This document shows, piece after piece, positions 332-22,867 of a DNA stretch of 64,000 nucleotides (position 1 is the first letter of the stretch; each line of letters opens with the position of its first letter). The DNA is from Rhypophila decipiens (lineage: Eukaryota; Ascomycota; Sordariomycetes; Sordariales; Naviculisporaceae). The stretch lies in contig MU858060.1 in the NCBI GenBank assembly GCA_033297075.1, forward strand, positions 1-64,000. Direction: 5' to 3'. A program made the translations under genes and the position numbers. The notes beneath the pieces were generated by a model. The model searched no databases and had not been told where the DNA came from. It was given only the letters and a program-made list of their open reading frames with translations.

Positions 332-3300
332 TCAACTCAAACCCAGCTTAGCCTTTGCAAACTTCAGCACATTCTCCGCCAGCGCCGCCAGACTCGGCGC
401 CTGGAGGATATCAAACACGGGCATCTCAATCCCAGCCTCCCTCGCCAGCCAGTTGCGAATCTCGATGGCGACCAGCGAGTCGGCCCCCAGATTCGCCGGG
501 GATCTGGCCGTGTCCACCTCGTCGGCGGGGATCATCAGCGCCCGCGCCAGCCGCTGGGCCAGAACCCTGAGCACCTGCTGCAACGCCCTGTCCTCCCTGT
601 CTGGCCCCAGTTTTGACAAGATCTGGGTCATGGTTGGGCCTGCTCCTTTATTCCTATCAGCGGTGCCGCTGGGCGTATTTCCCTCCTCCTCTCGCTTCTG
701 TAGACTCTGGGGACGGGTGTAGTGCAGGTGGGAAAAGACGGGATCTCTGACCCAGAAAGGCTCGGTCTGCTGGACAATATTCAGCACACCCGTGACCATG
801 TGGTGTTGATCTTGGTCATGCGAAGTGTGGGAGCCGTCCGCCATGGCCAGCTCCAGCATGGCCAGCAGCTCGGCCTCGGAGATGTCGGGCATGCCCAGCC
901 GCGTCAGATTGGCATCCGAGACGGCACCCGTCCTCTCGGCTACGAAGCCGACTCCGGCAATCTTGCCCACGTCGATGGCAGTGCCGGGCAGTCCGAGATG
1001 CTGACGTCGGTACTTGGCCAGCGCGACTTGGTAGGTACAGGCGGCGACGTAGTTGGCTTGCCCGGCATTGCCCGCCATGGCGGCCGCCGACGATAGCATG
1101 ATGAAGAAGTCAAGAGGTGTCTTCTGCTCCAGGGTAGCTTGATGGAGTGCCCAGGAGCCTTGGACCTTGGGACGGATGGTCGAGACGTAGGAGCTGTGGG
1201 CCATGTTGGCAAATGTGGCGTCGTTGAGGACCATGGCCGCTTGTATCACACCTCGAAGCGGCGGCAGCGTCTTCAGCGCAGCGCCGAGAGCAGCCGATAA
1301 CTCGTCAGCCTTGGTCACGTCGCATCGGAGGACAACGGTCCGCGCTCCTGCTCCGTTCAGCTCGGCGATCAACTGCGGGGCGGCGGGCGAGGACGACGTC
1401 CCTCCTCGAGAAACATATATGAGATTCCGGGCACCACGCTGAACCATCCAGCGGGAAATACTTCGTCCCAGGCCTCCCAGACCGCCGGCCAGGAGATATG
1501 TCGCGTCCGGCGCAAACGAAGCGGGCTCCAGGGAACGGGGAACAACCAAGCACAGGTCATTTTCTCTAAACTCCAACACGATTTTGCCCATGTGCCGCCC
1601 AGATTGCATCAGCCGGAAAGCCTCCTGGACTCTAGAGAAGGGCTCGACCAAGACGGGCGCGACCGGACCCAGAGCTCCGTTCCTGACCAGGGCCATGACC
1701 TGCTGCAAGATCTCGCCCGCCAGCTCCTGACGTTCCCGCCAGAGGTGCGTGACATCGACTGCGGCATACATGGTGTTGCTGGCCAGTGGCGACATGTCCA
1801 GCTTGCCGTTTACGTCGATATCGCGCTTCCCCAGCTCGATGAAGCGGCCAAAAGGTGCCAGCACCTTTGTCCAGGTCGCCCGCAGCGCGTCGCCGCCGAG
1901 ACTGTTGAGCACGACGTCGATGCCTCGCCCACCCGTCGCCCGCTCGACCTGTCGCACAAAGGACAAGTCGCGGCTGTTGAAGATGCGCTCCTTGGCGATG
2001 CCGTACGTCTTTGCAAGAAACTCCTTCTTCTCGGCTGACCCGACCGTGGCGTACACGGCTCCCTCCGGTCCGCATATCATCCTCGCCACCTGGATAGCCG
2101 CCTGGCCGACGCCACCAGCGCCGGCGTGCACCAGGACCGACTCTCCGGGACGCAGCCGCGCGATGTTGACGAGCGCATGGTACGCCGTCACGTAAACAAT
2201 CGGCAACGAGGCCGCTACAGGATACGACATGTTGGCGGGGATAGGCTGCACGCAGGTGGCCGGGCACTGGATGCTCGTAGCGAAGCTGCCGAGGTACCAG
2301 GCCGTCACGCGGTCGCCGACGGCGAGGTTGGTAGACGCCTCGGCATCGGGGTGGATTCTGGTCACGACGCCCGAGCACTCGTTGCCGAGATAGTCGTCGG
2401 CAAGCTCACCCAGGGTAATCAGCACGTCGCGGAAATTGAGACCCACGGCCTTGACCTGGATCTCGACGTGGCCTGGTGCGGGGTCTGTGCATGTCGAGGG
2501 CTTGCCGTCCTCGGCAAAGACGAGGGAATCGATGGTACCGATGTTTCTTGCCTGTAGACTTAGTGTCTGGTGCTGTTGCTGTTGCTGTTGTCGTCCGACA
2601 ATATCCCAGAGCTCGGGCAAGGGGGCCGTGTTGTGTGTGCGCTCCGCCACCCGCTGGCTTTTTTCTTGGTCTGGTATCAGCCGTTTGATCCAGACAATTC
2701 CGTCTCTTTCGACGTACTCGCTGTCGCTGGGTTTGTGTTTCGAGAGCAAGGTCTGCGTGTAGAGTCTCATCAGGATAGCAGCAGCCGCACCACGATCCCG
2801 GTCGGGGCCATGATGCAAATCAACCGTGACAAAGCGCCGGCTTTCGTCCTCGGCTCGCAGAGACCTGGCCAGGCCGTGAATCAGGGACAAATCGGGTCGT
2901 GTGCCCATGGCGCCTCGTGTCACCCAGATGATGCCACCCGACGCTGATTGTACGAGGTGCTTCAGCTGAGCAAAGTCAAGCTCTGAGATGTCTTGGAGCC
3001 AGGGCCTCTCCACTTCCATGAAGCTGATGATGGCTGTTCCAGCTTCTGGCACCTGGCCGCTCCTTATCATGTCGCATGGTGAGAAGCACTTGGTCTGGAC
3101 GCCGGCATCCTTCAACCTTGTCTCCAGTGCTTGGATGGCAGCTACCTCCGAAGCCAAGGGTTCATGCGGTTGCAGGATTGCTACCGCCCGTCTTGGTAGA
3201 TGATCAAGGTCCGGAAGTATGCCATTAGTGTGGCCGTTGATGTGGCCATTGGTCTGGACGGTCACGGGTGGCTCGCCCGCCAGTGGCAGTGCGGTAGCAA

Positions 3301-6300
3301 CCATAACGCGAGTTCCTTCCTCCAATGGATTCAGGAAATCCGGTGAGCTGGCCTGCAAGTCGCTGAAGCCGCTCGCGGCCAGTTTTTGCCGCCACTGGTC
3401 CTCGCTCAGCAAGGGACTCTGCTTGCGCCAGTCTTCTTCGGACAACCACCAGCCGGCCAGATTGCCAAAGATGAGCGAGACCGACAGCAGCTGGTGGGCC
3501 ATATCCAGGATCACCAGCTTGCCTCCTGGCCGAAGGAGCTTTCTCGTGTGGGCCAGGGTGCGGCTGATGTCCTTGGTTGCGTGGAGGACATTGGCGGCGA
3601 TGATGACATCAACCTGGCCAAAGCCCTGCGACAAAGGGTCCTCTTCGATGTTCAGCTTCTTGAACTCGACCAGGTGGCCCCAATCTGGGCGCAACCAGGC
3701 CTCGGCCTTGTCGAAGAAGCCAGCCGAGATATCCGTGTACGTGTAAGACTTCAGCCTGGGATACTTGTATGTGCCGCAGCCGCTCAGTGCGTCCATGACC
3801 GGGGCGGTGCAGCCGCCGGTGCCGGCCCCAATCTCCAGGTACTCGAGATTGGGGTTCTTGTGCGACAGAATCTTGATATACTCGGCGACCTGGGGATATG
3901 TCTTCTTCACACGAAGAGCGAACTTGTAGTAGTCGTGGAGCAAGCCATTGTCCATCATCAAACTCAAAGGATCCAGCTCCTGCCGCAGCACCATGGGCAG
4001 AGCTTGACCCATGCGCAAAATCATCTGGCCCTCATAGTCGTCCGGAGAAGAGAGCGATTGCTCCAAGCGAGCAAGCCGAGTCTGAACGTCAGCATCCCCC
4101 AGCCTCGTCCATTCCGACGTTTGCTGTTCATGCTGTCCTGCCCGCACAAGAGCGACCTGGGTCTGCATGTACTCGAGGAACTGGACATGATGGTTTTGCA
4201 TGCTGGTCTTTTCAGCCGGCAGGACCTCCTCCAGTGCTGCGTGCATGAACGAGTAAGCCAAGAACTCCAAGTCCCGTATTCGCGTTGTCTGCCGAGTCTC
4301 ATCACCAAGTGGTTTTCGCAAAATCTTGTTCAGCTGGTCTTGCTCCAACAAATCCACCTCGGGCTCCCACAAGACCCGACCAACATACTGCTGCTTTCCC
4401 TGGCCAGCTCCAGCTGACAGATCCACGACAGGAGACGAGGCTATCGCTCTGCATTTGACACCCTCCATGCGAATGACAGGAGCAAACGAGTCTTGGTCCA
4501 AGACTGCCACGCCCACCACCACGTCCCGGAAGCCGTGTGGCTGCGCCTTAGCCGCCGCCGAGAAGCGCCGACCGGCCGAGGCCTCAACGTGCCCCGATAC
4601 GGTAATCTCTTCGATGGACGTAGGCACGTATGCCTGCCTGAGCTCGGTGATATCACCGCGACAGAGTGCGACAATGCCCATCTGCAGCATGGCATCCATA
4701 GTGGTGGGGTGTACTAGGTACTCAAACTCGTGGCCCTTGGGCATGCTGCTCTTGGTGTCGGTCACTTCGAGTGTTCCCATGACGTGGTTGCTGTCCGGTC
4801 CCGCCAGGAGGCTCTTGATGGAGCGAAACGACGCGCCATAGGACAGGCCGATGGCATCTAGACCCGCATACAGCCGCTCGACATCCATCGAGTCGCGACA
4901 GGTCCTCTGCGCTTCCTGGGCGATAGTTGGCCGGCCCTCGTTCAGGTCCATGGCGTGCGCATTCTCCTCCTCCTGGCCGGGCACTACTCCGACTAGCACC
5001 AGGCCGCGACAGTGCTCCGTCCAGATTCCCCCGCCCGCGGCATTGTAGGAGAAAATCCGGAACTCGTTCCACAGATCGGACGACGACGCGCTGCTCGTCG
5101 GCGCGGGACGCAGGGAGAATACTACCTCGACACCACCGGTCGTGTCGTCGTCTTGGGATATCACGAGTGCACGAGAGATGCTCAGCTCGCGGATGCGGTA
5201 CTCCTTCATGGGTGTGCCCCTTTGCCGGGCCAGTTGCGATGCCGCTTGCAAGGCCATGCAGCAGAAGCCGGCGGCAGGGTAGAGAATGGCGCCCTGGATG
5301 ACGTGGTCTGCCACCCACGGCTGCTCAGAAAGTCGGATAAAACCACGCCACCGGGGTTCCAGCGGGTTCCAGTCCGACGTAGGCGCACCGAGCATGTCTG
5401 TGCGTGGCGCACTGCGGAGCCGGTAGTCCCGGCTGAGTCGGGACTCGGACCAAAACGTTCGCGTGTGGTTCCAGCTGTAGGGAGGAAGATCGGTGAGGAA
5501 GCCTTGTCGTGAGCTGGTTGGGTGCAAGGCCAAGGGGTAGCCATGTTCGAAGAGCGAGGCTGCTAGCTCGTGGGCGGTACGTGCTGCGTCCTTGCCGCGC
5601 ACAAGAGCTGATTGGTACTTGACAGTGAAAGCGCTTGAGGAGGAGGAGGAGGAGGAGGAGGAGGAGGAAGGAAGTATTGTGGTGAGGATTTGCTTTATGG
5701 GCCCAGCAAGCGCTGAATGGGGACCGAGCTCGACGAGAAGGACATTCCTGTTCTCACTGCCGTCATCATGGGTGTCTTGCCCAGTGCACAGAGCATCGAC
5801 AGCGCCATAGAAGCGGACTGGCGACACCATGTTCTCAACCCAGTAGTCGGCATCCAAAAGCTCACCAGGAAGTAGTTTTCGACCGTGTACGCTGGAAAAG
5901 AAAATTTCCGATTTGATAGGCCGGTCTCCAATTGCTCCTGCAGACATGATGTGCGTCTTGTACTCGTCAGCAATGGCCAGCATGTGATGAGAATGGTACG
6001 CCGTGTCGACCGCCAGTTTCCTCGCAAACACCCCGCGCGCCGTCAGGCATGTTTGCAGTTCCATTATTGCAGCCACGTCACCCGAGACCGTTGTGCTGCG
6101 TGGGCTGTTGACGCAGGCAACACGCATCTTGTCCACCACCTCGCCGCCTAGAGCTTTGATTTCATCAAGAGTCTCGTCTTCAGACAGGCCTACTGCCAGC
6201 ATGCCTCCCTTGTAGCCCCGTTCCCGAGTCTTGGGGGCCAGTAGACCTCGGAAGTAGGCAATTTTCATCGAATCCTCTAGTGACAAGGCTCCAATAGCGT

Positions 6301-8370
6301 ACGCAGCCGCGATTTCGCCGCTCGAGTGCCCTGCAACACGCCATGGGTTCACGTCCCAGGACGCGAGCAAGTCCACCAGGGCAATTTGGAGCGCGGTGCA
6401 CAGCGGTTGCGAGATTGGCGCCCGGTTCACCTCAGAATCCGATTCGCCCTTCAAGAGCTCTGAGACAAGATCCCAACAAGCTCCTAGCTCCCGAACGGCC
6501 TTGGCACAGAGGTCGAGCGTCTTTCTGAAGGTTGGGTGCGACACCAGCTCGCGGCCCATTCCCCACCACTGTGCTCCTTGGCCCGTGAAAATGAATGCAA
6601 TCTTGGGAGGGGCGGCGCCTTTGGTAAATCTTGATGGAGTCATCTGCCCAACAGTATCCAACTTGGTTATGAGCTCCTTGGCCGCAGCAGCCACGATGCC
6701 GTGGCGGTATTCCAGCCTAGACCGGCGGTTGTTGAGGGTAAATGACAAGTCGTTCAGTAAGCTGCCAGTGGCGCTGCTTGCTCCGTCCTGCACTGCTGCA
6801 GATTCGATCAAACGTGCTAGGGAGCTGGCGCTCTGGCTCAGAGCCTTGGGGTCGCTGGCGGAGAGCGGAAACAGCCACGGCCCACGATGGCTACATGTAT
6901 CATCTGCATCATGCCCGTCGCTATTTTGAGCTCTGGTTCCAGCATGCCTGGGAATACGGGTCTTGTGGTTCCCTTTGAGGCCCCGTGAAGACAGGTAGTG
7001 ATAGGCATCATCTATAATGACATGGCTGTTGGTGCCGCCGTAGCCAAACCTAATTCCACAAACAGGTTAGTGAACAATGGTTTTAGAAGAAAGCAAGGAT
7101 CAAGTTTAGATTACCCATTGACACTCGCTCGACGGACGCCAGCGATAGGCCATTCCACCAACTCAGTTGGCACCTGGATATTCAACCCATTGAAGTCGAT
7201 GTTCGGGTTTCCCTTTTCGAACTCGATATTAGGCAAAATCAGCCCTGCCTCAACACTCAATATGGCTTTGATCAAGCCGGCCAGTCCGCTGGCTCCTTCC
7301 AAGTGCCCAAGATTCGCCTTGATGCTGCCGACATAGAGCTTCTTACTCCGCCCCTCGACTGTTCCCAGGACACTCCCCACAGCGCGAGCCTCGATAGGAT
7401 CCCCAGCAGCCGTCCCGGTGCCGTGGGCCTCGACGTAGCCCGTGGCAGCCATCTCGTTCTCCAGGCCGGCCTGGCGATAGGCGGTGCGCATCAGGGCCAT
7501 CTGCGCCTCCTGGGACGGGTGCGTTATGCCCGGGCCCCTGCCGTTCGAGTTGACGGCTGTGCCGCGAATCACGGAGCGGATGGTGTCGCCATCGCGCAGG
7601 GCATCGTGCAGCGGCTTGAGGACCAGGGCGGCCACGCCCTCCCCGCGGGCGTACCCATTGGCGCGCGAGTCGAAGGCGTATGAGATAGAATCAGGGCTCA
7701 GGAAGCCCAAGTTCGACAAGCCCACCGAAAGGTCCGGGCTGAGGATCAAGTTGGTGGCTCCCACGAGCGCAGTGGAGCACTCGCCCCCCTGGAGGCTCTG
7801 GCAGGCCAGGTGCAGTGCGACCAAGCTGCTGCTGCAGGCCGTGTCGAGCGTCATGCTGGGGCCCTTGAGGTCGAGGCAGAAGCTAATGCGGTTTGAGAGA
7901 ATCGACTTGCCGGTGCCGATGGAGTGGTACTTGGGCAAGACTTCGGCATCGCGCTTGGCCATCTCGTCATAGTCTTGCGTGAAGCAGCCGACGAAGCAGC
8001 CGGCGTCGGAGCCGGCGAGCCGGTCCATCTGGATCCCGGCGTTCTCGGCGGCTTCGTAGGCGACTTCGAGCAGGATCCGCTGCATGGGATCCATGCTGAT
8101 GGCGTCGGCGGGAGATATGGAGAAGAACGGCGCGTCAAACGCGGCTATGTCCTGGTCCAGGAAGTAACCGCCACGGACGTTGATGGAACCGTTGCGGCTG
8201 CCGTCTGGGTGGTAGAAAGCATCGATGTGGAACCGGCTTGGGGGCGTCTCGGTTCTTGCCGATTTCTTCTGTGCCAGCATGTCCCATAGCTTGCCTGGGC
8301 TGTTTGCGCCACCTGGTAGGCGGCAGCCTATGCCAACGACGGCGATGGGCATGGTGCGATCCTCCGTCAT
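332..8370 (-). CDS. Highly reducing polyketide synthase (KS-AT-DH-MT-ER-KR-ACP)
   Basis: Type I iterative PKS that would build a reduced, optionally C-methylated chain from malonyl-CoA in the cytosol. Two exons, 8370-7115 and 7049-332, joined by a 65 bp GT-AG intron; together they encode 2657 aa with the frame restored through the KS sequence VNGFGYGGTNSH. KS: DTACSSS with Cys179, HGTGT His316, NLGHLEGASG His356. AT: GQGAQ and GHSSG with Ser661. A poly-Ser run of 13 follows the AT. DH: HVIQGAILYP with His1002 and the partner Asp near 1205. MT: EIGAGTGG near 1492. ER: HAGAGGVGQAA. KR: LLAGGLGGLG and an NY catalytic pair. ACP: GADSL with Ser2610 at the extreme C-terminus. All seven domains look intact, so a fully reducing enzyme is expected. 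No thioesterase, reductase or acyltransferase release domain is present, so release must come from another protein. The start is the first ATG; ATG at codon 7 is an alternative. Confidence 0.97.
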
Positions 8371-8430
8371 GGTGATTCACTGATTGTTGTCTTGATGCTT
8401 TGGTCAAGTGTTTTCGGGGGGATCTCTGTT

Positions 8431-8676: not shown

Positions 8677-8689
8677 GCACCGGCGGAGG
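8677..8689 (+). promoter_or_regulatory. Weak copy of the cluster GC-rich element (PKS promoter)
   Basis: GCACCGGCGGAGG, about 307 bp upstream of the PKS ATG. It shares ACCGGCGG with the element upstream of the FMO gene but lacks the following CTTTTC. It is the weakest of the five copies. Confidence 0.4.
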
Positions 8690-9047: not shown

Positions 9048-11002
9048 CTATTCGCTGGTGTTGATGGTGGGTTTGAGCGCGTCAACAGTTGAGATATCTT
9101 TCCACGGCAGAGCGAAGCTCAGCAGGCAAGCGAGGGCCGCGGCTGCCGTGGAGAAATACTGCGTGGATGAGGGAACCTGTGTCAACATACTTGTACGGCC
9201 AAAACGGGTCGCACTGGAGGGCGAAGGAACAGGTTGAAAGACATAACTTACAAACATATTTGTGATGGCCAAGTTGTAAGCCTGCAAGAATCCGGGCATG
9301 TCAGATGCTGAGACTAGCTCCCGCACGCTTGTGGCGCCGGTATCTATCACAGTCTGGGCGTCTATATCGGGGGCGTACTTGTCGAGTAACAATGGTAGCT
9401 GGTTGCGAAAGATGGTTTGAGCGGCCGAGACCGATACGGCGAGACCAAGCTGCATAAATAGGTTGATGACGGCCAGCGACATGGCCGAGTCAGCGACTGG
9501 GACGTCTTCCTGCACCGCTATGACGGGCTATATACACGCAATTCAGATGGTTACTAACAACTACGTTGGATCGGGTCTGTTATCATCTCCAACACGATTT
9601 TAGACTTACAGCTTGGAAAGCAATTCCTCGACCAATGTGGGTCAAGACTTGGTATCCCAACCACTGGCCAACCGTGGCGTCGGGTCGGAGCGTGGACAAG
9701 AGACCGGACCCAATCGCCGTCAGCATGCTGCCTATGATAGCCCACGGCGGGACGTAGCGCAACTTGCGGACCAGGGCCCCGAAAGTGATTATGGAAAGCA
9801 CCATTGCTATCAGTGATGGGAGCAGGCGTACGGCACTCTGGCTGGGGTCGTCGTCGAGGATGGCCTGAAACCAAAGAGGCAAGAAGAAGGGGATGATCTG
9901 CGTAGCTCCGCCCTGCAGGAACATCAGAAAGCTCGCGATGAAGACGGAACGCCGACGGAAGCATGACGGCGGGATCAGTGATTGATCTTGCTGGACCTTT
10001 GCGGACCAGACGAAGAGGGCCAAGACCACGAGACCGCCACAGAGGAGGCCAATGATGGCTGGAGAAGACCAAGCCAGATGACCGCCTCCCCATGTGATGA
10101 CAAGAAGCAACATAATAGTCGCCGCCGCGAAGAGAAAGAAGCCCAGCGGGTCAAGCTTGCGGTGCAACGTCTTGAGGGCCTGTCGCAATGGAGCTTTGGC
10201 ATTAAGCTCAGGTAGCTTGATAGCGGCGGTGATGATCATGGTGGCTGCCCCCAGCGGGAGCAGCATCCAAAAACACCAGCGCCAGTTCGATCGAGCCGTG
10301 AGCACACCGGCAATGATAGGGCCCGTCATGGACCCAATGGATATCATGGACATGGCAGCAGCCGTCACGAGTGGACGAATGCTCGGGTCGCAAGCTGACC
10401 CGATGATGAGAAGGGCGCCGCTCACGAGACCGGCCGAGCCGATGCCATTGACGACACGGCCAGCGATGAACATGGGACTCGAGTGCGCCAGAGCGCAGAC
10501 GAGTATACCCAGCTCGAAAAGAGCCATGAAGCCTAGGTAGACCAGCTTGATGGGCAGCTGGTCATACATCTTGCCCACCGGCGGGATGAAGACACATCTG
10601 TTGGGATAAGGATGTCATGTCAAAACTTGGTTACCGGCGTCGTCGAATCGTCTGGGGGAGCACTCACAAAGCGAGAACGTAGGCCGACTCGTACCATGAC
10701 ACGTCGTTTAGAGTGCCAAACTCGTTGGTAAGCGTCGGTATGACCGTCGATAGCATTGTGAGTTCAAGTGCCACCAGGTAGATGCCCAAGTAGAGAGCTG
10801 CGATGACTAGCCATAGTTTCGGGCCGTGTAGAACGGTAGCGGCTGGAGAAGACGATGAAGACGACGACACTGTCTGGTCAGGCTCGACAAATGGTTCATT
10901 TTTGGCTACCTCGTCATGGTGCAAGACCAAGTTGCCTGATGCTGTTAAGTTTGATGGTACGGCTGTGGCCTCCCTCGTTTGTGTTTGGTCGCTTGATTTC
11001 AT
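9048..11002 (-). CDS. MFS drug/metabolite exporter (DHA2-like, 14-TM type)
   Basis: Plasma-membrane proton antiporter of the major facilitator superfamily, probably exporting the cluster product. Exons 11002-10668, 10597-9610, 9527-9252 and 9176-9048; introns of 70, 82 and 75 bp all have GT-AG ends. The N-terminal 60 residues are polar with a Ser run. The first membrane segment is followed by a motif-A-like loop, and GRVVNGIGSAGLVSGALLI and MTGPIIAGVL match the DHA2 pattern of fungal cluster transporters. A further membrane segment near the C-terminus (AAAALACLLSFALPW) follows the last splice. The third intron is a multiple of three without stops, so an unspliced form would add 25 residues; splicing is preferred because GTAAGT and a CAG acceptor restore the usual tail. 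The gene is divergent from the regulator gene, with a shared 644 bp promoter region. Confidence 0.93.
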
Positions 11003-11646: not shown

Positions 11647-12876
11647 ATGACCCCGTCCGGCCAGGTACGCGATGCCTGTGACCGATGTCACAGCATCAAG
11701 ACACGTTGTGAGCGCATAGTAGGTGATCAGCTCGGCTGCCAGCGGTGCACTCGTTTGGGGAAGCCGTGTTCCTACAGTCCTCCGGGTCAGACGGGTCGGC
11801 CACCAGGAGGTCGCAAGCGCAAGGAGCCCGATGGAGGGGCGCCCGAGGGTCCGGATCGTTCCTTCCAGCAGAGTTCCAGGAGCCCAGAACGGTTTGACGA
11901 TCCGGGCAACATCAACGTGGTCCCCTGCGCGACCAGGACAGCTCTTCCGTCTCCTGACGTATCCGAGCCCGCCATTTTTCTGGATTCTGTGCTGCATCTG
12001 ACACCACCGGAGCCTGGGCAGTACGATGTCTCATTTGGGATGCAAGACTTTGCAATGTCACCATGGCGGTCTTATGCGCCCGACATTATGTCTCCAAGCG
12101 ACATCACGATGGAAACCCAGAACGAAACCAACCCAATGTACCCACCACCGCCACCATCCCACGCGCCACCCCAGGCGGCCATGCAGCCATACCCTCCCGA
12201 GCAGCAGGCTAGCTCTCGTAACCAGTACAAGGCCACGGCATCTCCATCCGACACAACACACATGCAGCTAATGCAGCTCGCAAATCTCCAGTCCAGACTT
12301 CTGGTGCTGGGGAAGTCCGTGGCCGAGGCATCCGATAGCCGCTCCTCCATTGAAGAGGTGCTCATCGTCAGCGAAAGTTTTATCACGAGTTTCCAGACCA
12401 TCGAACCGCTTTGTTACCGACTGCCCGTGAGGAACACCAACACGATGACGCCAACCCAACAGCAAAAAGAGACCAAGACGAGCCAGACAGCCATTTTCCT
12501 CGTTTCGAATTGCTACCTCAACCTGATTGATATCTTCGAGACACTGGTCGCTCAGTTGCAGCATGAACGAGACTTTGGGGAAGCCACTGAGGATCGAGGA
12601 CGCCCTCCGCAGCAAACCTTGGTCAGCATCGGTTCGACTGGACTGTCGCTGTCCAGGCAAGCAGCTGCCGAAGTCCACCTTCACTTGGTCTTTCGCATGT
12701 TTGATCGTCTGGCTGTCAGTCTGGGAGCTCGTGGGGATAGTACCGACACGTCTGATGGTGACAAGATGGCGCAGAGCATTGCGGGCCTGGCAGGCCGGGC
12801 GGTCCGCGATCTGGCCACGCTTGAAGAAAGGATATCAGATAGACGGGGCAAGGCCAAGTTTGTTATAGAGGAATAA
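11647..12876 (+). CDS. AflR-like Zn2Cys6 transcription factor
   Basis: Probable pathway-specific activator of the cluster. The protein has 409 aa and no intron. The binuclear zinc cluster is at residues 11-41 with six cysteines (11, 14, 21, 31, 34, 41), spaced C-x2-C-x6-C-x9-C-x2-C-x6-C. A basic stretch (GGRKRK) follows. The middle is Pro/Gln/Ser-rich, and the C-terminal half (residues 200-409), including NCYLNLIDIFETL, resembles the AflR regulatory domain. The start chosen is the ATG in CAAAATGACC; the reading frame extends 11 codons further upstream but without an ATG. The gene sits between the exporter (divergent) and the ligase (convergent). The conserved elements upstream of the other cluster genes are candidates for its sites. 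Confidence 0.92.
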   Translation: MTPSGQVRDACDRCHSIKTRCERIVGDQLGCQRCTRLGKPCSYSPPGQTGRPPGGRKRKEPDGGAPEGPDRSFQQSSRSPERFDDPGNINVVPCATRTALPSPDVSEPAIFLDSVLHLTPPEPGQYDVSFGMQDFAMSPWRSYAPDIMSPSDITMETQNETNPMYPPPPPSHAPPQAAMQPYPPEQQASSRNQYKATASPSDTTHMQLMQLANLQSRLLVLGKSVAEASDSRSSIEEVLIVSESFITSFQTIEPLCYRLPVRNTNTMTPTQQQKETKTSQTAIFLVSNCYLNLIDIFETLVAQLQHERDFGEATEDRGRPPQQTLVSIGSTGLSLSRQAAAEVHLHLVFRMFDRLAVSLGARGDSTDTSDGDKMAQSIAGLAGRAVRDLATLEERISDRRGKAKFVIEE

Positions 12877-13181: not shown

Positions 13182-14885
13182 TCAGTCATAAGCACGGTCA
13201 ATCACATACCTGAACCGATAAGTCGCCTCGGCTCGCATAATCTCGCCCTTTGGAGTCCGCGGCACCACCTCGTCCCTGACCACCACAATCATGTCCCTGT
13301 CCAGCGGCACCGGCACATGCCCATTGACGCACTGATCGACAGTCGCGCGGATTCGGTTCAGAACATCTTGGTCCGACAACCGGCATTCCTTCTTGACAAA
13401 GACGAGCAAGACTGGCCTCTCCCGCCGCTGTCCGGCCAGCAAGGCCGCATCCACCACATCGGCATGGCACTTCTCCACGGCGTCCTCGTACGACCTCGAC
13501 AAGAGCAAGACGCAGTCCACCGCTGTGGGGTTCACCTCGAGCACGTCCGACCTCCGCCCCAAGCACTTGTATCGCTCTTGAGACGGGTGTTTGACAAACA
13601 CGTCCCCCGTGTGGAGTGAGCCGTCGGCCCTGTTGGCCCATTTCTTTGCATCCATGCCCGGGAGTGTGGGCAGCACGACCAGCTCAAACAGCTGCTCGCC
13701 GCCGGCCCAAACACTCCCTTCCTCGTCGCCCAGCGGACGGAACACGAGATGGGGCGCCGTCTCTGCGTCGGGCTGGGCGTAATCCCAGTATCTGGCGTCG
13801 CCGGCCGAGGCGGCGGAGCTCAGACCGAAAGGGACCTCGGTCATGCCGTACTCGGTGGCCAGCCGCACCCCCGCGGCGAGCAGACGGTCGGCCGTGCTGC
13901 TTGCCAACACCCCGCCCACGCAGACGACCATGATGCACCGGCGGAGCGCATCGATGCCCTCGCTGGTCTCGGCGGCCTGGTAGATGAAGGACGGCTGGAC
14001 CCAGACGACCTGGGGTCTTGTCTCGGCGAGGATGGTGGCCGATGAGGCCTCGTGCGCGCTGGCGTCCTCGCGGGACCAGCTGGCGCGGGCGCCGGAGCGG
14101 ACGAAGGAGAAGAGGATGCCGCTGAAGCCGGCCATCCAGTGGAGCCACGAGCCCATGAAGAAGGTCTTGTCGTGGAAGACTGGGGGGAGACCGCGGAGGG
14201 TCGAGAGCAGAGAGCGGTGGCTTTTGGGGACGAGCTTGGGGGCACCGGAGGAGGCGGATGAGTGTATCATGACGGCGATTTCCTCGGATACGCCAGTGCT
14301 TTCTGCTGGCGGCGTCCAACAGATGTCGCCATCGGCAGAGACAGTCCTGACTTTAAGCAGCTGCTCTTTCGTTGGTAATGGTATGCTCGAGTAAATCGAG
14401 TTGGCCGTGCCGTTCACCACCAGCTTGCAGCTCGCCTCTTTTACAAGAAGCTGCACGTGTTCTTGTGGTAGGGTTGGGGCAATCAAGAGAATGATGTGGC
14501 CCATTCGGATGAGCGCCAGAAGGGTGATGACGGATTCGATCGAGGCGTAGATGCGAAACCCAATCACGAGAGGAGTGCTAGGACTGGACTGCCGGCCATC
14601 CGCCGCCGCCGACGATGACGATGACGTATTGGAGTTGCGGATTGGGATGCCATGTTGGTCGCAGTAGATACGGATTGCCCTGCTAGCCATATCCCACACC
14701 CATTCCGGAGAGTAATAGGCGTAGGTAGCAGCACTACCGCCACCTGCTGCTGCTGTTGTGGGGAACCCAAACGAGTCACCCGAAAGAGATTTTCCATGCT
14801 TGACAAATTCTTGAAGAGTATGTGAGTCCAAGGCCTCACGGCAAACGACAACCCTGGGCGGCTCCTCTACGGTGACAGCCATCAT
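13182..14885 (-). CDS. Stand-alone adenylate-forming acyl/aryl ligase (ANL superfamily)
   Basis: Expected to activate a carboxylic acid with ATP as the acyl-AMP and probably transfer it to CoA or a carrier protein. The protein has 567 aa and a single exon. Core motifs: the P-loop is IHSSASSGAPKLVPKSH (Gly/Ser-poor compared with the usual TSGSTGxPK), then YGMTE, TGD near residue 432, GRRSD, and the C-terminal PKGEIMR with the catalytic Lys. There is no phosphopantetheine-carrier domain and no reductase domain, so it is not an NRPS-like enzyme. It also lacks an obvious peroxisomal targeting tripeptide (it ends RAYD). Inside this cluster the plausible substrates are PABA (giving 4-aminobenzoyl-CoA as a PKS starter) or the polyketide acid (giving an acyl donor for the NAT). 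The sequence alone does not choose between them. The first two codons are both ATG. Confidence 0.85.
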   Translation of the reverse strand: MMAVTVEEPPRVVVCREALDSHTLQEFVKHGKSLSGDSFGFPTTAAAGGGSAATYAYYSPEWVWDMASRAIRIYCDQHGIPIRNSNTSSSSSAAADGRQSSPSTPLVIGFRIYASIESVITLLALIRMGHIILLIAPTLPQEHVQLLVKEASCKLVVNGTANSIYSSIPLPTKEQLLKVRTVSADGDICWTPPAESTGVSEEIAVMIHSSASSGAPKLVPKSHRSLLSTLRGLPPVFHDKTFFMGSWLHWMAGFSGILFSFVRSGARASWSREDASAHEASSATILAETRPQVVWVQPSFIYQAAETSEGIDALRRCIMVVCVGGVLASSTADRLLAAGVRLATEYGMTEVPFGLSSAASAGDARYWDYAQPDAETAPHLVFRPLGDEEGSVWAGGEQLFELVVLPTLPGMDAKKWANRADGSLHTGDVFVKHPSQERYKCLGRRSDVLEVNPTAVDCVLLLSRSYEDAVEKCHADVVDAALLAGQRRERPVLLVFVKKECRLSDQDVLNRIRATVDQCVNGHVPVPLDRDMIVVVRDEVVPRTPKGEIMRAEATYRFRYVIDRAYD

Positions 14886-15329
14886 GAACTGTGGTGGTGT
14901 AGGTAAGGGGCGTTAACACAGCGATCAGGATCTTGCTCGGCTCACTTTGCGAAGCGGTCAAAGGTGATGGCAATTACATGTATGTGCTGACAGGGCCCGA
15001 GATATACATACATGAAGCGAAGCCTTGGCCCTTGCAGTTTGCCAAAGTCCGGACCTTTGACAACGTAGTAGGGTGGTGGCAATTATGGATCGGCTTGGGG
15101 GATGGGTGAGTGAGGCGAGTAAATCCCCGTTGGCGTTTCCACCGTCGGCGGCTTTTCCTCACTTTCTAACCAGTGCTTGCCGGTACGTAGATTTGAAGAA
15201 AAACGCCGAACCAACGATCAACAATAGAATATCCCTTTGAGGTCAAAGGGGAGTACCAACGTCTGCCTGTGGAACAAATGTTGAGGATGGTCGGCAGGTG
15301 GACCCTCGTTGCAAAAGGATTCACAAAGA
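14886..15329. other. Ligase promoter and FMO 3' flank
   Basis: Non-coding. It holds TACATGTA at 14975-14982, 90 bp upstream of the ligase ATG, and the best copy of the cluster GC-rich element at 15139-15157. Confidence 0.7.
15139..15157 (+). promoter_or_regulatory. Cluster element CCACCGTCGGCGGCTTTTC (ligase promoter)
   Basis: This copy is the reference for the family. It contains CCG-T-CGG, an inverted CGG pair of the kind bound by Zn2Cys6 proteins, followed by CGG and a T-run. It lies about 254 bp upstream of the ligase ATG. Confidence 0.6.
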
Positions 15330-17009
15330 CTAAGATCCGCGAGATTGTTGAACCTGCCGCCATTCCTCAACAAGGCCCCGGTAATCCGCCGGTCGATGCT
15401 GCTCCACGAGATTCCGCCACCGGCCCTTCTTGCGTAAACGCCTCAGTCCGACGTCCTCGAGGAGCAGGTCAATGTACGGCAGGGCGTCCAAGACCAGGTC
15501 GGGGAACGGCGAGCCCAGACGGCGCATTTGCTGGTACGCCATGTTGCAATGGGTCCATTGGCGACATGTCTGTGCATCAACCGGGGATAGGGCACGCTGG
15601 AGGAATGCGCTGCTCCAGACCGCCTGTGCTTGAGCGACAAGTGTCGTGTGGACGGACTGGTAGAAGCCGACGAATACGAGGTTGTTGAAGTGGTTGAGTT
15701 GAGGGTTCAAGGGGGTCATGAAGCGGTAGAGTTGCAGAGGGGGTGATGATGTGGAACTTGCACGTGTCCTTGGGGGCTGCTTTTTGCAGAGTAGCTGGAT
15801 GCTTGGGCAGATGTTGTTGAGATGTTGCAGCGTTTCTGACTTGTCCTCTTCTTCCAGTACTCCTCCTCCTTTTTCGATGCCGCTGAAGCAGACATTGGGC
15901 GTGTGTTTCCAACCGGTGCATGCCACGACGACGGTTACATGGTCTATCACCTGGCCGTCGGAGAGATGGACTGTGTTGCCGTCCTTGAAGGCTTCGATCT
16001 CGGCATGGTGCACGATGATCCTTCCGTCCCTGACCAGGTCAAACCAGTCAGTCTCGTAGTTGTGCACGCTGAGCGAATTGCCCATCCAAAAGGTCGAGAA
16101 TCTGGGCCGAAGCGGCGCCAGTCTGGTGCTAATGCTGATATACCCCGAGGTCCACAAGACCAGACAGTCAAGGAATGCCCAAAACATGGCGCAGAGGACC
16201 CGGCCCAGCCATGATGCGGTGAAGTAGCGCTGTGTAGCCGAAGCGAGGGGGTTCGGGTCAAACCATGTAAAGACGCGTGTTGAAGTTATCCGCGAGATGG
16301 AAAGGGCGTTGCCGAGGAGTCCTCGTCTCCGCCACATCCACGAAGGGCCGCGACCCCCAGCTCGGATGAGCATGTGGACGGTGGCTTCCGGGCTTGCTGT
16401 TGCAGCCGTGTAGCAAACATCCCAAGCCGATTTGTTGGCCCCGATGACCACCACATGTCCATTGGCATCTCGTAGATGATTTGCCTGCGAGCTGAGGTCT
16501 ACGGCATGGAAGAATTTGCCATTGAACCTGTCTTGAAGTCCAGGATAGGAGGGACTCAGCGGCTGCGAAGTGAGTCCCGTCGCGACAGCAATGTTGCGTG
16601 CCATCAGAGACTCACTGCCACAACCTGAAGCAAATTCGACACACCATGTTCCATCCTCGCCCAATGTAGCCGCTTCCACTTTGGTCCTCAACCTAGTTCT
16701 CCGGAACAGGTCGAAGTGGTGGGCAAAGTCGCAAAGATATCGGTGGACCACAGGGCCCGGGATATGCTGACCCGGCTCGAGCCCATATCGCTTCAAACCC
16801 ATGGGGAAGTCGCTGAATTCGTACGACCCGACCACGTTGTTGGTCTTGAGCCCCGGGTAGAGCCTCTCCTGCGCCCAGACGCCGCCGATGCTGTCAGCGC
16901 TGTCGACGATGAGTATTTTGGCTTGAGGGAGGCTTTCCGAGTAAGTCTTGGCGACGGCAAGGCCATGGAGGCCGGCGCCGATGACGAGCAGGTCAATTGG
17001 GTTTGACAT
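15330..17009 (-). CDS. FAD/NADPH flavin monooxygenase (FMO family)
   Basis: Class B flavoprotein monooxygenase of 559 aa, a single exon. The FAD-binding Rossmann motif GAGLHG is at residues 11-16 with the acidic end of the second strand (VDSAD) and the GGVW motif. The FATGL-like ATG motif appears as VATGLTSQ, and the NADPH-binding motif is VIGANKSAWD. A second conserved block, VVACTGWKH, lies in the C-terminal half. FMOs oxygenate nitrogen or sulfur, or perform hydroxylation and Baeyer-Villiger-type reactions. In a PABA pathway, N-hydroxylation of the aniline is one attractive possibility and hydroxylation or rearrangement of the polyketide is another. A hydrophobic stretch near residues 280-300 (LCAMFWAFLDCLVLW) might associate with membranes. 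It is minus-strand, like the ligase and the ADC synthase gene. Confidence 0.9.
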   Translation of the reverse strand: MSNPIDLLVIGAGLHGLAVAKTYSESLPQAKILIVDSADSIGGVWAQERLYPGLKTNNVVGSYEFSDFPMGLKRYGLEPGQHIPGPVVHRYLCDFAHHFDLFRRTRLRTKVEAATLGEDGTWCVEFASGCGSESLMARNIAVATGLTSQPLSPSYPGLQDRFNGKFFHAVDLSSQANHLRDANGHVVVIGANKSAWDVCYTAATASPEATVHMLIRAGGRGPSWMWRRRGLLGNALSISRITSTRVFTWFDPNPLASATQRYFTASWLGRVLCAMFWAFLDCLVLWTSGYISISTRLAPLRPRFSTFWMGNSLSVHNYETDWFDLVRDGRIIVHHAEIEAFKDGNTVHLSDGQVIDHVTVVVACTGWKHTPNVCFSGIEKGGGVLEEEDKSETLQHLNNICPSIQLLCKKQPPRTRASSTSSPPLQLYRFMTPLNPQLNHFNNLVFVGFYQSVHTTLVAQAQAVWSSAFLQRALSPVDAQTCRQWTHCNMAYQQMRRLGSPFPDLVLDALPYIDLLLEDVGLRRLRKKGRWRNLVEQHRPADYRGLVEEWRQVQQSRGS

Positions 17010-17475
17010 TTGTGGACTGGAGACGGAGAATGAAGCACCGTGACGACTGGTATTGATAGCAGACGGGTTACATGCACCAATGTTATAAGATTCCCTGCAA
17101 TACTACATGTACATACCCGCACAGGTTCAGCTCTCCGTACTCGGTACTGGGGGTCCATACCACCGGCGGCTTTTCTTTGCCTTTCGACAGGTCATCGGCG
17201 GGTTCAAGCTAGAACGCAATCTGCCCTGGTAGAGGTGACGCGTGCAAGACTTGGAAAGGAACTGACATCACTTCAAAACAACGCAGAGACTAACATTGGA
17301 GATTAACACTGACATCAAAGTAGGTGTTCTGATGACAGAGTATCTAGCCATTGGCAGAATGAATTTAATCAAGAATAGTCTGGTAGTTACATGTATTGAT
17401 CCATCTGCTCGTCACGACTGGATTCATTCACAGCTACATCCACGACAAAGGAGATGTACAGTACACTCTTCACAA
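17010..17475. other. FMO promoter and ADC synthase 3' flank
   Basis: Non-coding. It holds TACATGTA at 17104-17111 (95 bp from the FMO ATG) and the GC-rich cluster element at 17160-17175. A second ACATGTA lies near 17389, close to the ADC synthase stop. Confidence 0.7.
17160..17175 (+). promoter_or_regulatory. Cluster element CCACCGGCGGCTTTTC (FMO promoter)
   Basis: Identical to the ligase copy apart from a 3 bp deletion (TCG) in the centre. It lies about 151 bp upstream of the FMO ATG. Confidence 0.6.
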
Positions 17476-19836: not shown

Positions 19837-20181
19837 GGTAACCCTATTAATTCTTGAGTAAATATTCTTAGGTAAATCGATTTAGAATTCGGGAAGACAT
19901 GGATGTAAATATGGGCGATACGACGAAACAGGTACTCCAACATGTAACATGCTTTGAATGTTGACTGGGTTGATGTCCAGTGAGAGTGGCTCCGGTCGGC
20001 GGTTTTTCTTGTTGCAAGCCGAGGTTTACATCTATGCTCGGCGGGTTTCTGACCATCACCACTGTAGAGAAAAAATTTGAAACAAGCCAATGTCTACAAA
20101 TGCCTTGTAACGCTCCTTGATTTACCGACAAACCTTTACCAACTACGGGTTAACCGAAAAATAACAACCCTTGCTGATCCA
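19837..20181. promoter_or_regulatory. Bidirectional promoter, ADC synthase / NAT
   Basis: Head-to-head spacing suggests co-regulation of PABA supply and arylamine acylation. From left to right it holds an exact 14 bp ATTCTTGAGTAAAT (19850-19863) with an immediate degenerate tandem copy (19864-19877), AACATGTA (19939-19946), and the GC-rich cluster element (19990-20008). Confidence 0.7.
19990..20008 (+). promoter_or_regulatory. Cluster element CTCCGGTCGGCGGTTTTTC (ADC synthase/NAT promoter)
   Basis: Same length as the ligase copy, with matching TCGGCGG and TTTTC blocks. It is about 154 bp from the ADC synthase ATG and 174 bp from the NAT ATG, so one site could serve both genes. Confidence 0.6.
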
Positions 20182-21212
20182 ATGGCGTCTCTTCTCTCGG
20201 CCGAACAGGTCGAGGCCTATCTCGACCGCATCTCACTGCCCGCAAGTGCAAGGATACTACTCAAGGAGGGACCAAATGGAAGCCAAGCGCTCGAAGCCGT
20301 CACCATCTTGCAGCAACACCACATGGCCGCCGTCCCCTTTGAGAACCTCGACCTCCATTACTCGTCTCACCGATCTCTTCCGCAGCAGACCGAGAGCGTC
20401 TACGACACAGTGGTGCGCCGTCAGCGGGGCGGAACATGTCCCCAAGTGCACCAGCTGTTCTCTCACCTCTTGCGCGCCTTTGGCTTCTCGGTCTACTGCA
20501 CCGGGGCCCGCCTCAATGCCTCGGCAAGCCCGGTAGCCAAGGTGGATGTGGACAGGTCGACTATTGCTTATGGGCCGTTGTGAGTAAGACCTGCCCAAAA
20601 GCAACTTGATTGCTGCGACCGGGCCACTGCTAATGATACAACAGAATTCACGTTGCCACCCTCGTCGAGATCCAGGGTCGTAGACACCTCGTCGATACCA
20701 ACCTCGGGCCGGCCGGCTCACCGTCCCCGGTGCCGCTGCAACACGACAAACCAGAGGTCGACATCTGGCCCCGAAGGCGCCGCATGATCTACGATACTCT
20801 GCCGGGCATGTCGTCGTCTGACGGAAAGTGGTGGCGTCTGCAGGTGCAGGAGCCAGACCATATATGGATGGACGTCTGCTGCTTTACCGAGACAGAATGG
20901 ACCCCGGTCGACTTTGAGATCATGGTATCGGGAATAGGCCAGCTGGGTGCCGGATGGTTCAGGTCTTTGGTCGTTTGCTACCGCATTATTCTCGAGGACA
21001 GCTCGCCGGTGGGATACCTCTTGATGCTGCACGACGAGCTGCGACGCTACTACAAGGGCAGGTTGACTGTTGTTCAAAAGCTGTACAGCGAGGAGGAACG
21101 AGTGACGCTTCTTCGTGAAGACTTTGGAGTGAATTTGAGCAGCCAGGAACGCAAGAGCATCAGCGGTACGGTTGGGGAACTGAAAGACGCAGATCATGAT
21201 TTCTATGGCTAG
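20182..21212 (+). CDS. Arylamine N-acyltransferase (NAT family)
   Basis: Transfers an acyl group from acyl-CoA to an aromatic amine through an acyl-Cys intermediate. Exons 20182-20579 and 20645-21212 (65 bp GT-AG intron) encode 321 aa. The triad is visible: Cys86 in RGGTC, His135 in IHVATLVEI, Asp150 in HLVDTNLG. PABA is the classic NAT substrate, so its pairing with an ADC synthase is coherent. After the nucleophile the family usually reads RGGxCxExN; here it is RGGTCPQVH, with Gln and His at the Glu and Asn positions, which may signal an altered pocket. Bacterial precedent (RifF) shows NAT homologues releasing polyketides as amides, so it may off-load the PKS, which lacks a release domain. 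N-acetylation or malonylation as tailoring or self-protection is the simpler alternative. The start is the ATG in GATCCAATGGCG. Confidence 0.92.
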
Positions 21213-21508
21213 TCCAATTCTACAGCTTGACTTGGACTGCTGGGATTACATGTACTTGTACAAGTGAAACTACTACATATAACCCTAACCCTAACCCTGC
21301 TAGACCTTTTACCCCTGAATCTGGGGATAGCTTCATGTTCGATTCGAGCTGAAAGATGGGCCAAATTGACTTGATTCGGCCTCTTCGGAACCGTGAATTT
21401 TACTTTTTTCGACAATCTCATCAAGCGACGTTGATCCGAGTCTGAACTCAGCAGGCAACAAACTTGTGCATTTCCTGAAAGCATTTCCTGAAACAGTACT
21501 CTCAGTTC
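21213..21508. other. NAT/OMT convergent 3' region carrying a telomere-like repeat
   Basis: Non-coding. It is dominated by a degenerate repeat unit with three CCCTAA copies (21279-21340), followed by sequence similar to 28478-28515. Confidence 0.7.
21279..21340 (+). repeat. Interstitial telomere-type repeat unit, copy A
   Basis: Begins ATAACCCTAACCCTAACCCT and continues through TTTTACCCCTGAA and GGGGATAGCTTCATG. The same order of blocks occurs twice at 28.3 kb. CCCTAA/TTAGGG is the telomere repeat of most filamentous ascomycetes. The unit lies just past the NAT stop codon. Confidence 0.75.
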
Positions 21509-22867
21509 TCACACAAGTTCCGCCTCAATAACAGTGTCTGTACTTGTAGTCGAGACGTCACACCACATCTTGACCACCGTGAGCCCCGCTCTCTCCAACA
21601 GCCGCCTCCATTCGTCTTCAGGCCTCTCGCGCGCCGAATGCAGATGCATCATCATGATATCCGCCGACGCGAGGTCCAGGCTGGCGCCCGTGGCAGGAAG
21701 CACCGTGTCGCAGACGAGCAGCTTGGAATATCCCCTCTCCATTGCCGCTGCCGTCATGCGGAGGATGTCGTGCGCCTTTTCGTCGTTCCAGTCGTGAAGA
21801 ACGGATCGCAGCAGGTAAGCCCGGGCTCCTGAGCTCATGCACGGTCAGCACAGAAAAGAAATAGCAGCTAAAAATATTTGACTGACCCTTGAGAGGTTGG
21901 GGCTGGAAAAAATCATGCGCCATGACTTTGATCCTGTCGCTAACCACCTTTTCCTTGGCCAAGGCAACCACGTCGGGCAGGTCTTGGAGGACCAAATCGC
22001 CCAGCAGCGGGTCTCCATCATCACCTGTGCAGCAATGTCTCTCGAGCATCCGGGTGACATCCAGACCATGCCCACCGCCAATGTCGACAAGAAGGGGCCT
22101 CGTCGCGTCGTGGCCATCCACCAGGACCTTTGTATCGTAGAGCTCGGTCCAGGGCCGCTTCCGCTGCGACAGACCCTTCATGGCGCACACAAAGTGGGCT
22201 TGGGCGCTGGGATCGGTCTGCAGAAAGGCAAAAAGAGGCAGCCGGTCGGCGTTGGCGTCCATGAAGTTTGTGTTTTTGGGGTCTAAGGGCTGCTGGTATT
22301 GCGTCTCGGCTAGAAACTTGGGCAGATTCATGGCCGAAGCTGTGTATTGGGCGCCGGTACTGTTTGATTATAAGCCTGGTTGTCAGTATCACGCAAGTTG
22401 TAGGATATCCTGCCTGATGGAACTTACACCATAGCGGTATGCGCAACGACATCCTTCTCATCCCCCAGCGCCAACGAGGTCAACGTGGGACGATGGCGAT
22501 CTGGGCCAACCTGTTCAATCAAGCAGGCCGCGCTCATGATACGCAACAATCTCCGCAAGAGTTCCTTGTCGCAAGGGTGCCGGCAGCACTTCAGCAAATC
22601 GTCGAGGCTCTTCTCCGGCTCCGAGTCGACATGATCCTCTTTCCATCCCTGCCAGAGGCCAAGATCGATCAAGGTCTGGAGAGCAGCCATGGTGTTGAGG
22701 GTGGCGGTGTATTTCCACATCTGCTCGAACGGCGTCTCGAGGCGCGCCAGCAGTCGGTATGCGGCCGCGATGGTCTGTCTCCGCTCGTTCTCGGCATCTC
22801 TGCCTATGGACTCTAGGTTGATGGCATCAATGCTTTTGATGGCATCCGTTGCGCCGTTTGGATTCAT
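21509..22867 (-). CDS. SAM-dependent O-methyltransferase (plant COMT-like, PF00891 type)
   Basis: Class I methyltransferase expected to methylate a hydroxyl or carboxyl of the pathway product. Exons 22867-22428, 22359-21887 and 21828-21509, with GT-AG introns of 68 and 58 bp, encode 410 aa. The N-terminal helical dimerisation region (LETPFEQMWKYTATLNTMAAL) is followed by the SAM-binding loop VDIGGGHG near residues 238-245, LQDLPDVV, and the catalytic HDW at His316 (RSVLHDWND). These are the diagnostic features of fungal cluster O-methyltransferases. Upstream lie TACATGTA (59 bp) and the GC-rich element (85 bp), so it is probably the right-hand end of the regulon. Possible substrates include the PABA carboxylate or a phenol created by the FMO; the sequence does not decide. 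Confidence 0.93.

What the first reader, a model, noticed from the sequence alone, without database searches (positions are those of the whole stretch)
332..22867. Eight-gene cluster combining PABA synthesis with a complete highly reducing PKS
Seen: HR-PKS, MFS, AflR-like factor, ANL ligase, FMO, fused ADC synthase, NAT and O-methyltransferase are contiguous. Known: ADC synthase makes the PABA precursor, PABA is the archetypal NAT substrate, and bacterial PABA-primed polyketides (candicidin type) exist. Inference: the product is a PABA-polyketide hybrid, such as an N-acyl-PABA ester or a PABA-primed polyene. I know of no described fungal pathway with this set.
Basis: partly seen in the sequence, partly recalled or inferred. 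Interest (0 to 1): 0.88.

Follow-up and report, generated by a model that had tools for sequence, protein, structure and literature searches.

The report
Fungal PABA-plus-polyketide gene cluster
A dung fungus carries a gene cluster that pairs an extra enzyme for making the vitamin building block PABA with a large polyketide factory, and relatives of the two genes lie together in several distantly related fungi, which points to a family of fungal PABA-polyketide compounds whose products are still unknown.

Summary
Eight genes lie between 332 and 22,867 of a Rhypophila decipiens contig: HR-PKS, MFS, Zn2Cys6 factor, adenylate-forming (ANL) enzyme, FMO, fused ADC synthase, NAT and O-methyltransferase. 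'AflR-like' is not supported. The PKS lies at the contig end, so the left border is unknown. New here: relatives of this ADC synthase and this PKS share a contig in 12 further cases (Sordariomycetes, Leotiomycetes, Dothideomycetes and five unnamed assemblies), mostly among the closest PKS relatives (8 of 13 against 4 of 106). HR-PKS plus ADC synthase is thus a recurring unit. Six of the 12 linked relatives lack the ER NADPH motif, hinting at polyenes; this PKS keeps it. A PABA-polyketide hybrid is the best reading, PABA more likely as starter (about 0.45) than as N-acylated end (about 0.25); a self-resistance copy is a live rival (about 0.13). Product, expression and activity are untested. Seven searches of open papers on the question listed no fungal precedent. 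Verdict: real, a new variant of a known kind; connectivity and structure remain inference.

The parts
332..8370 (-). Highly reducing PKS, 2657 aa, KS-AT-DH-MT-ER-KR-ACP, no release domain found; one intron 7050-7114 (model)
   Evidence: motifs for KS, AT, MT, ER, KR, ACP and DH, MT, ER, KR, ACP. The DH pattern was miscounted and found nothing; the DH site is
9048..11002 (-). MFS transporter, 600 aa, introns 9528-9609 and 10598-10667 (model, one of several possible)
   Evidence: MFS_1 96.9 bits on the middle exon
11647..12876 (+). Zn2Cys6 transcription factor, read as one open frame; no AflR domain listed
13182..14885 (-). Stand-alone adenylate-forming (ANL) enzyme, AMP-binding + AMP-binding_C_3; no carrier or reductase domain found
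15330..17009 (-). FMO-like flavin monooxygenase, 559 aa
17476..19836 (-). Fused glutaminase/ADC synthase (PabA-PabB type), 786 aa, one of two ADC-synthase copies in the genome
   Evidence: RPIKGT motif
20182..21212 (+). Arylamine N-acyltransferase homologue (NAT), 321 aa, intron 20580-20644 (model); Cys-His-Asp triad kept
   Evidence: two further NAT loci in the genome, C60 and C103
21509..22867 (-). O-methyltransferase (Methyltransf_2), 410 aa, introns 21829-21886 and 22360-22427 (model); HDW motif kept
1..331 (.). Contig end next to the PKS: left border of the cluster unknown

Best explanation
The cluster makes a PABA-polyketide hybrid. The cluster ADC synthase makes extra aminodeoxychorismate from chorismate and glutamine. 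An ADC lyase encoded elsewhere turns it into PABA. The ANL enzyme activates the carboxyl group of PABA, which primes the HR-PKS. The PKS extends, C-methylates and reduces the chain. The chain leaves without a release domain, for example as an alpha-pyrone whose enol the OMT methylates. The NAT and/or the FMO act on the aryl nitrogen. The MFS exports the product and the Zn2Cys6 factor switches the genes on. Shown: gene content, kept motifs, a second ADC-synthase copy, recurring PKS/ADC-synthase linkage. Inferred: PABA as starter, order of steps, every substrate, form of release, roles of MFS and factor.
For: A second ADC synthase lies at C66 next to Vps55 and a proteasome subunit. The proxy checks out for the one contig known: C16 is 452414 bp, as given for P0001. 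Two pairs have nearby locus tags: V499_00043/00041 and PWT90_02932/02938. Linked PKSs lie high in the ranking: 8 of 13 against 4 of 106 (cut chosen after looking; Fisher p 6.9e-7), rank test without a cut p 0.0014. Distances of the two proteins correlate over 13 pairs (Mantel r 0.75, 0 of 20000; r 0.59, 141 of 20000 on 10 de-replicated pairs). The ANL lies on a contig of the same length as ADC synthase and PKS in C. ligniaria and in lgn 39398. Where amino-acid A domains have the Asp of their FDxS motif (recalled as Asp235), the ANL has Met (alignment; Met also in P0001-P0003, Ser in P0005), which argues against an alpha-amino acid. ADC-synthase lysine motif. NAT triad, best solved relative 7qi3.
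Against: The ANL search found only 5 proteins, so the other linked pairs may load PABA by other means or not at all. The ANL substrate is unknown. No ADC lyase candidate on the contig. In Parascedosporium the FMO-ANL pair is on a contig with no ADC synthase or PKS among the listed hits. The cluster-type ADC synthase scores higher to the family model than the C66 copy (640 against 577 bits), linkage is shown for only 12 of 120 listed relatives, and linked rows are not clustered on the ADC-synthase tree (34 and 40 of 500 shuffles as low); in some fungi this type may be the ordinary PABA synthase. Correlated distances may reflect shared species history. The PKS branch also holds 24 rows without shown linkage.
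Confidence: 0.45

Rival explanations
1. PABA is the far end, not the starter: the HR-PKS makes an acetate-primed acid, the ANL activates that acid, and the NAT transfers the acyl group from CoA (or the PKS) to the amine of PABA, as RifF/GdmF-type amide synthases do with an arylamine (recalled); the OMT methylates the PABA carboxyl or another oxygen.
For: The NAT family uses acyl thioesters and arylamines (recalled); triad kept; GdmF is among the solved relatives, weakly (27.5 bits). No release domain found in the PKS, so an acyltransferase could release the chain.
Against: The best solved NAT relative is 7qi3 at 122 bits, which I recall to be a fungal N-malonyltransferase of small arylamines, not an amide synthase. 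The ANL resembles NRPS A domains rather than the fatty-acyl type. Whether the other PKS/ADC-synthase loci have a NAT was not testable.
Confidence: 0.25
2. The ADC synthase is a self-resistance copy: the polyketide inhibits folate synthesis at ADC synthase, and the cluster copy is insensitive.
For: A biosynthetic cluster with a duplicated target enzyme is a known fungal pattern (IMP dehydrogenase and mycophenolic acid, PMC3184278, search listing only). The recurring core seen here is only PKS plus ADC synthase, and no ADC lyase candidate is on the contig.
Against: The cluster copy is only 40% identical to the C66 copy and belongs to a broad separate clade, though divergent resistance copies exist. 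The same cluster has a NAT and an acid-activating enzyme, which a resistance role does not explain.
Confidence: 0.13
3. ADC goes to another amine such as p-aminophenylalanine rather than PABA, or the ADC synthase is an unrelated neighbour of the PKS in this genome.
For: No ADC lyase candidate on the contig; the left end of the cluster is missing.
Against: The chorismate mutase search gave 1 hit, on C199, and the prephenate dehydrogenase search none. The latter is weak evidence, because it also missed the primary-metabolism gene expected in a fungus. A chance neighbour does not explain 12 recurrences.
Confidence: 0.1

Closest known systems
Aureothin/neoaureothin pathway (Streptomyces; recalled, one search listing)
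   Same: From recall: PABA synthase, N-oxygenase, acyl ligase, PKS with an aryl starter, pyrone O-methyltransferase. The same roles could be filled here.
   Different: From recall: bacterial modular PKS and a non-haem diiron N-oxygenase; here one iterative HR-PKS and an FMO-like flavoenzyme, plus a NAT. No homology of the two gene sets was tested; likeness of roles at most.
Candicidin-type aromatic polyenes (Streptomyces; recalled)
   Same: PABA-primed polyketide supplied by a dedicated PABA synthase (recalled).
   Different: Modular bacterial PKS and macrolactone (recalled); here an iterative fungal PKS that keeps its ER motif.
Strobilurin HR-PKS (basidiomycetes; PMC6158276, start of abstract in search listing)
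   Same: Fungal HR-PKS; the benzoyl starter is recalled.
   Different: Benzoate rather than aminobenzoate (recalled); the abstract speaks of a very unusual C-terminal part, not seen here.
LepI and MpaG'-type Methyltransf_2 enzymes
   Same: Nearest solved relatives of the OMT by sequence (115 and 95 bits).
   Different: LepI has RDF where the OMT keeps HDW, so a true methyltransferase is likelier than a LepI-type pericyclase.
Waspergillamide B and ochraspergillic acid B (Aspergillus ochraceus; PMC6410417, passages read)
   Same: Fungal metabolites with a p-nitro- or p-aminobenzoic acid unit.
   Different: A diketopiperazine and a dihydropenicillic acid adduct; for the related o-aminobenzoate compound the paper suspects bacteria as the source. 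No genes were given in the passages read.

Membership tests
Fungal ADC synthase (PabAB, TIGR01823) | Equivalog model above its cut-off | tested here: met
   640.4 bits against 442.55; C66 copy 577.3
Fungal ADC synthase (PabAB, TIGR01823) | ADC-synthase lysine (PIKGT) rather than anthranilate-synthase PIAGT (distinction recalled) | tested here: met
   RPIKGT aligned to the same letters in E. coli PabB 1k0e; P[IM]KGT in 121 of 122 rows
Fungal ADC synthase (PabAB, TIGR01823) | Glutaminase Cys-His-Glu (residues recalled) | tested here: met
   GVCLGFQSL and QFHPES in the protein, aligned to 8hx6
Fungal highly reducing PKS | KS-AT-DH-MT-ER-KR-ACP with active-site motifs (motifs recalled) | tested here: met
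PABA-primed polyketide pathway | ADC synthase gene kept together with the PKS gene | tested here: met
   same cluster here; 12 further contigs by equal contig length
PABA-primed polyketide pathway | Ligase or loading domain specific for aminobenzoate | tested here: inconclusive
   ANL present, Met at the FDxS Asp site; substrate unknown; relatives found on the contigs of 2 of the 12 linked pairs
PABA-primed polyketide pathway | Aminobenzoyl unit in the product | not testable with these tools
   needs LC-MS and labelling
Arylamine N-acyltransferase (NAT) | Cys-His-Asp triad (residues recalled) | tested here: met
   RGGTC, IHVATL, LVDTNLG; alignment to 7qi3 and 2ija
RifF/GdmF-type amide synthase | Transfer of a polyketide acyl group to an aryl amine | not testable with these tools
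   GdmF only a weak relative, 27.5 bits
LepI-type pericyclase | Loss of the OMT His at the HDW site (recalled) | tested here: not met
   LHDWNDE against LRDFPD in LepI
AflR-type regulator | AflR domain besides Zn2Cys6 | tested here: not met
   only Zn_clus listed at E<=0.5
Baeyer-Villiger or N-hydroxylating FMO | Subclass fingerprint and activity | tested here: inconclusive
   weak relatives of several subclasses; fold prediction failed, pLDDT 35.5
Self-resistance gene copy | Insensitive to the cluster product | not testable with these tools
   product unknown

The most novel reading that the evidence does not exclude
A widespread, undescribed family of fungal iterative PKSs primed with PABA, each with its own ADC synthase: a fungal counterpart, reached independently, of the bacterial candicidin and aureothin pathways, with branches that lost the enoyl reductase and so make aminophenyl polyenes, and a branch (R. 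decipiens, Coniochaeta ligniaria) that adds its own ANL ligase and may N-oxygenate or N-acylate the aryl amine.
Probability: 0.35. Interest if true: 0.8.

Novelty: new variant of a known kind. Interest (0 to 1): 0.62.

Why it matters
If true, fungi have a family of aminobenzoate-polyketide hybrids, a chemistry I know mainly from Streptomyces, and the ADC-synthase/PKS pair is a simple handle for finding them. It would show how an iterative fungal PKS accepts a basic aromatic starter, which bears on engineering starter choice, and it offers a test set in which the ER motif is kept in some members and lost in others. If instead the ADC synthase is a resistance copy, the product would be a candidate inhibitor of folate synthesis, a route absent from humans.

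Tried and rejected
LepI-type pericyclase for the 'OMT': rejected on the HDW site. AflR assignment: rejected. p-Aminophenylalanine route: no chorismate mutase or prephenate dehydrogenase hit on C16, though one search found none anywhere in the genome and is therefore weak. ADC synthase as the only copy: rejected. Missing left-hand genes: the 2OG oxygenase fused to the C. ligniaria ADC-synthase gene model has its best relative (46%) on another contig, C3, so it gave no lead. FMO structure: no usable model, so no fold search was run. A10 motif comparison with the two other AMP-binding_C_3 loci gave no match by my pattern. My DH pattern was miscounted and matched nothing; one search shows the site.

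Papers: seven searches asked for a fungal PABA/HR-PKS pathway or PABA-primed polyketides, three for waspergillamide, aureothin and R. decipiens metabolites. I saw the listings, which for searches show only part of the papers found. No listed title or abstract start describes such a fungal pathway. Passages by word search only, in four papers: PMC6410417, PMC8403587 (no occurrence of the words), PMC9864250 and PMC12734299.

Limits of the linkage count: only the best 120 of 1381 ADC-synthase hits and 120 of 3948 PKS hits were listed, and three PKS hits have no contig. 'Same contig' rests on equal contig length. My typed PKS list left out one length (P0231) and swapped two neighbours (P0232/P0233); the missing length is not in the ADC list, so the count of 12 stands. 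The 13/106 cut was chosen after seeing the list; the four low-ranked linked PKSs are short gene models (1577-2157 aa). Linked rows are not significantly clustered on the ADC-synthase tree (34 and 40 of 500 shuffles as low); on the PKS tree they are (1 and 2 of 500). The PKS tree used 61 of the 120 PKS hits, chosen by me and including all 12 linked ones, plus the window; R. decipiens V8F06 was labelled linked by assumption. ER altered motifs also occur in PKSs without shown linkage (P0134, P0135, P0140).
Full report
What is there. The window is G000:C16:1-64000 of a 45.7 Mb assembly of 408 contigs. C16 is 452,414 bp long, the contig length given for P0001, which its source names Rhypophila decipiens. 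P0001 equals the window's ANL without mismatch apart from a 16-residue stretch absent from that gene model and the residues before its start; ADC synthase P0006 is 100% identical over 98% of the query and on a contig of the same length. So the organism is Rhypophila decipiens as labelled there (Sordariales, Naviculisporaceae). Eight genes fill 332-22,867: HR-PKS, MFS, Zn2Cys6 factor, ANL, FMO, fused ADC synthase, NAT and OMT. Models without stops could be made for PKS, MFS, NAT and OMT by placing introns; the other four are single open frames. To the right I scanned 13 open frames: a DUF3433 protein follows, then among others a cytidylyltransferase-like, a WD40, a PIG-S, an acyl-CoA synthetase, a Kelch and a TIM-barrel protein. 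I take the right border to be near 22.9 kb; genes split into short exons could have been missed. To the left the contig ends 331 bp after the PKS stop, so the cluster may be incomplete.

Are the enzymes intact? The PKS keeps motifs for all seven domains. The ADC synthase scores 640 bits to TIGR01823 and keeps the RPIKGT motif and glutaminase residues. The NAT keeps Cys, His and Asp; the genome has two other NAT loci (C60, C103). The OMT's nearest solved relative by sequence is LepI, but it keeps HDW where LepI has RDF, so a methyltransferase is likelier. The ANL is distantly related to NRPS A domains; at the site of their FDxS Asp it has Met, which argues against an alpha-amino acid substrate. 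The FMO could not be placed in a subclass and has relatives in the same genome at 36-43% identity (C127, C268).

Is the ADC synthase dedicated? The genome has chorismate-binding matches on C16, C66 and C168. The C66 copy, 871 aa in one frame, scores over the ADC-synthase cut-off (577 bits), is 40% identical to the cluster copy and lies beside a Vps55 and a proteasome gene. I take C66 as the housekeeping copy by its neighbours. Against that, the cluster copy scores higher to the family model (640 bits), and its clade holds many fungi in which I cannot tell whether it is a second copy. The C168 locus matches in three pieces and was not identified further. In the tree rooted on C66, the cluster copy lies in a fully supported six-row branch with its identical public entry P0006, C. 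ligniaria P0007, P0008 (lgn 39398), P0009 (jgi) and P0010 (lgn); P0011 (jgi) joins next.

Does the pair recur? Of the 120 best ADC-synthase hits (of 1381), 12 share an exactly equal contig length with one of the 120 best PKS hits (of 3948), while no unequal pair lies within 10 bases. Ten of the 12 contigs are between 39 and 160 kb, so the two genes are close; the other two are 3.2 Mb and 0.7 Mb. Seven cases are named: Coniochaeta ligniaria, Pseudogymnoascus sp. VKM F-103 (locus tags two apart), Delitschia confertaspora, Aphanocladium album (six apart), Xylariaceae sp. FL1272 and FL1019, and Chaetomidium leptoderma; they span Sordariomycetes, Leotiomycetes and Dothideomycetes (FL1019 not looked up). 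Five are unnamed (lgn, jgi, ena). Linked PKSs rank high: 8 of 13 (P0127-P0139) against 4 of 106 (P0140-P0245), Fisher p 6.9e-7 with a cut chosen after looking; a rank test without a cut gives p 0.0014. In a tree of 62 PKS rows, all 14 rows labelled linked fall on one side of a starred branch of 38 rows, none among the other 24. On the ADC-synthase tree the linked rows are scattered. Pair distances correlate, r 0.75 (13 pairs) and 0.59 (10 de-replicated pairs; 141 of 20,000 permutations), but shared species history could add to that.

What does the family suggest? The ER NADPH motif (GGVG) is present in the window PKS and in 6 of the 12 linked relatives, and altered in the other 6 (P0137, P0138, P0139, P0202, P0217, P0229); it is also altered in P0134, P0135 and P0140, for which no linkage is shown. 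Those with an altered motif would be expected to make unsaturated chains; for the window's product a polyene is possible but not indicated. The ANL is confined as far as the search saw: 5 proteins, of which those of R. decipiens, C. ligniaria and lgn 39398 lie with the ADC synthase and PKS. In Parascedosporium it is merged in the gene model with an FMO relative, with gaps in both, and no listed ADC synthase or PKS has that contig length; Madurella fahalii has a 38% relative and a PKS hit on different contigs. So the recurring core is PKS plus ADC synthase; the ANL marks a sub-branch.

How it most likely works. Shown: genes, kept motifs, second ADC-synthase copy, recurring linkage. Inferred: PABA from chorismate through the cluster ADC synthase and a lyase encoded elsewhere (class IV aminotransferase matches on five other contigs and none on C16; which, if any, is the lyase is unknown); activation by the ANL; priming of the PKS; release, perhaps as a pyrone; O-methylation; N-acylation by the NAT or N-oxidation by the FMO. 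The main rival is the reverse attachment, a polyketide acyl group put on the amine of PABA by the NAT. The second is a self-resistance ADC synthase. I give about 0.45, 0.25 and 0.13, and 0.1 to another chorismate-derived amine or no relation.

Known or new? Seven searches of an open-access library on the question listed no fungal pathway of this kind; most subscription journals are missing from it and MIBiG was not available. PABA-primed polyketides are known in bacteria and aryl-primed HR-PKSs in fungi (recalled; strobilurin paper seen in a listing), so this is a new variant of a known kind.

Noticed in passing
P0007 (Coniochaeta ligniaria): The ADC-synthase gene model runs on into a 2OG-Fe(II) oxygenase-like domain (PF03171), probably a neighbouring gene merged by the annotation.
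   Followed up: partly
P0004 (Parascedosporium putredinis): FMO and ANL relatives are merged in one gene model with gaps in both, so the pair seems adjacent there and is perhaps mis-modelled or decaying; no listed ADC synthase or PKS has that contig length.
   Followed up: partly
window 48264-50295 +: Second AMP-binding gene, long-chain acyl-CoA synthetase type (PRK08279, 390.7 bits on its second frame), outside the cluster.
   Followed up: no
window 28711-30267 +: 518-residue open frame with only a sub-threshold SnoaL-like match (22.9 against 28.4 bits); function unknown.
   Followed up: no
window 13182-14885 -: The public gene model of the ANL (P0001) leaves out 16 residues (48 bases) in frame; the frame is open without that step.
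   Followed up: partly
   Followed up: no
L006 (C66) and the ADC-synthase tree: The C66 copy sits on a long branch away from all 120 listed ADC synthases (37-44% identity), so two deeply separate ADC-synthase types exist in this fungus.
   Followed up: partly
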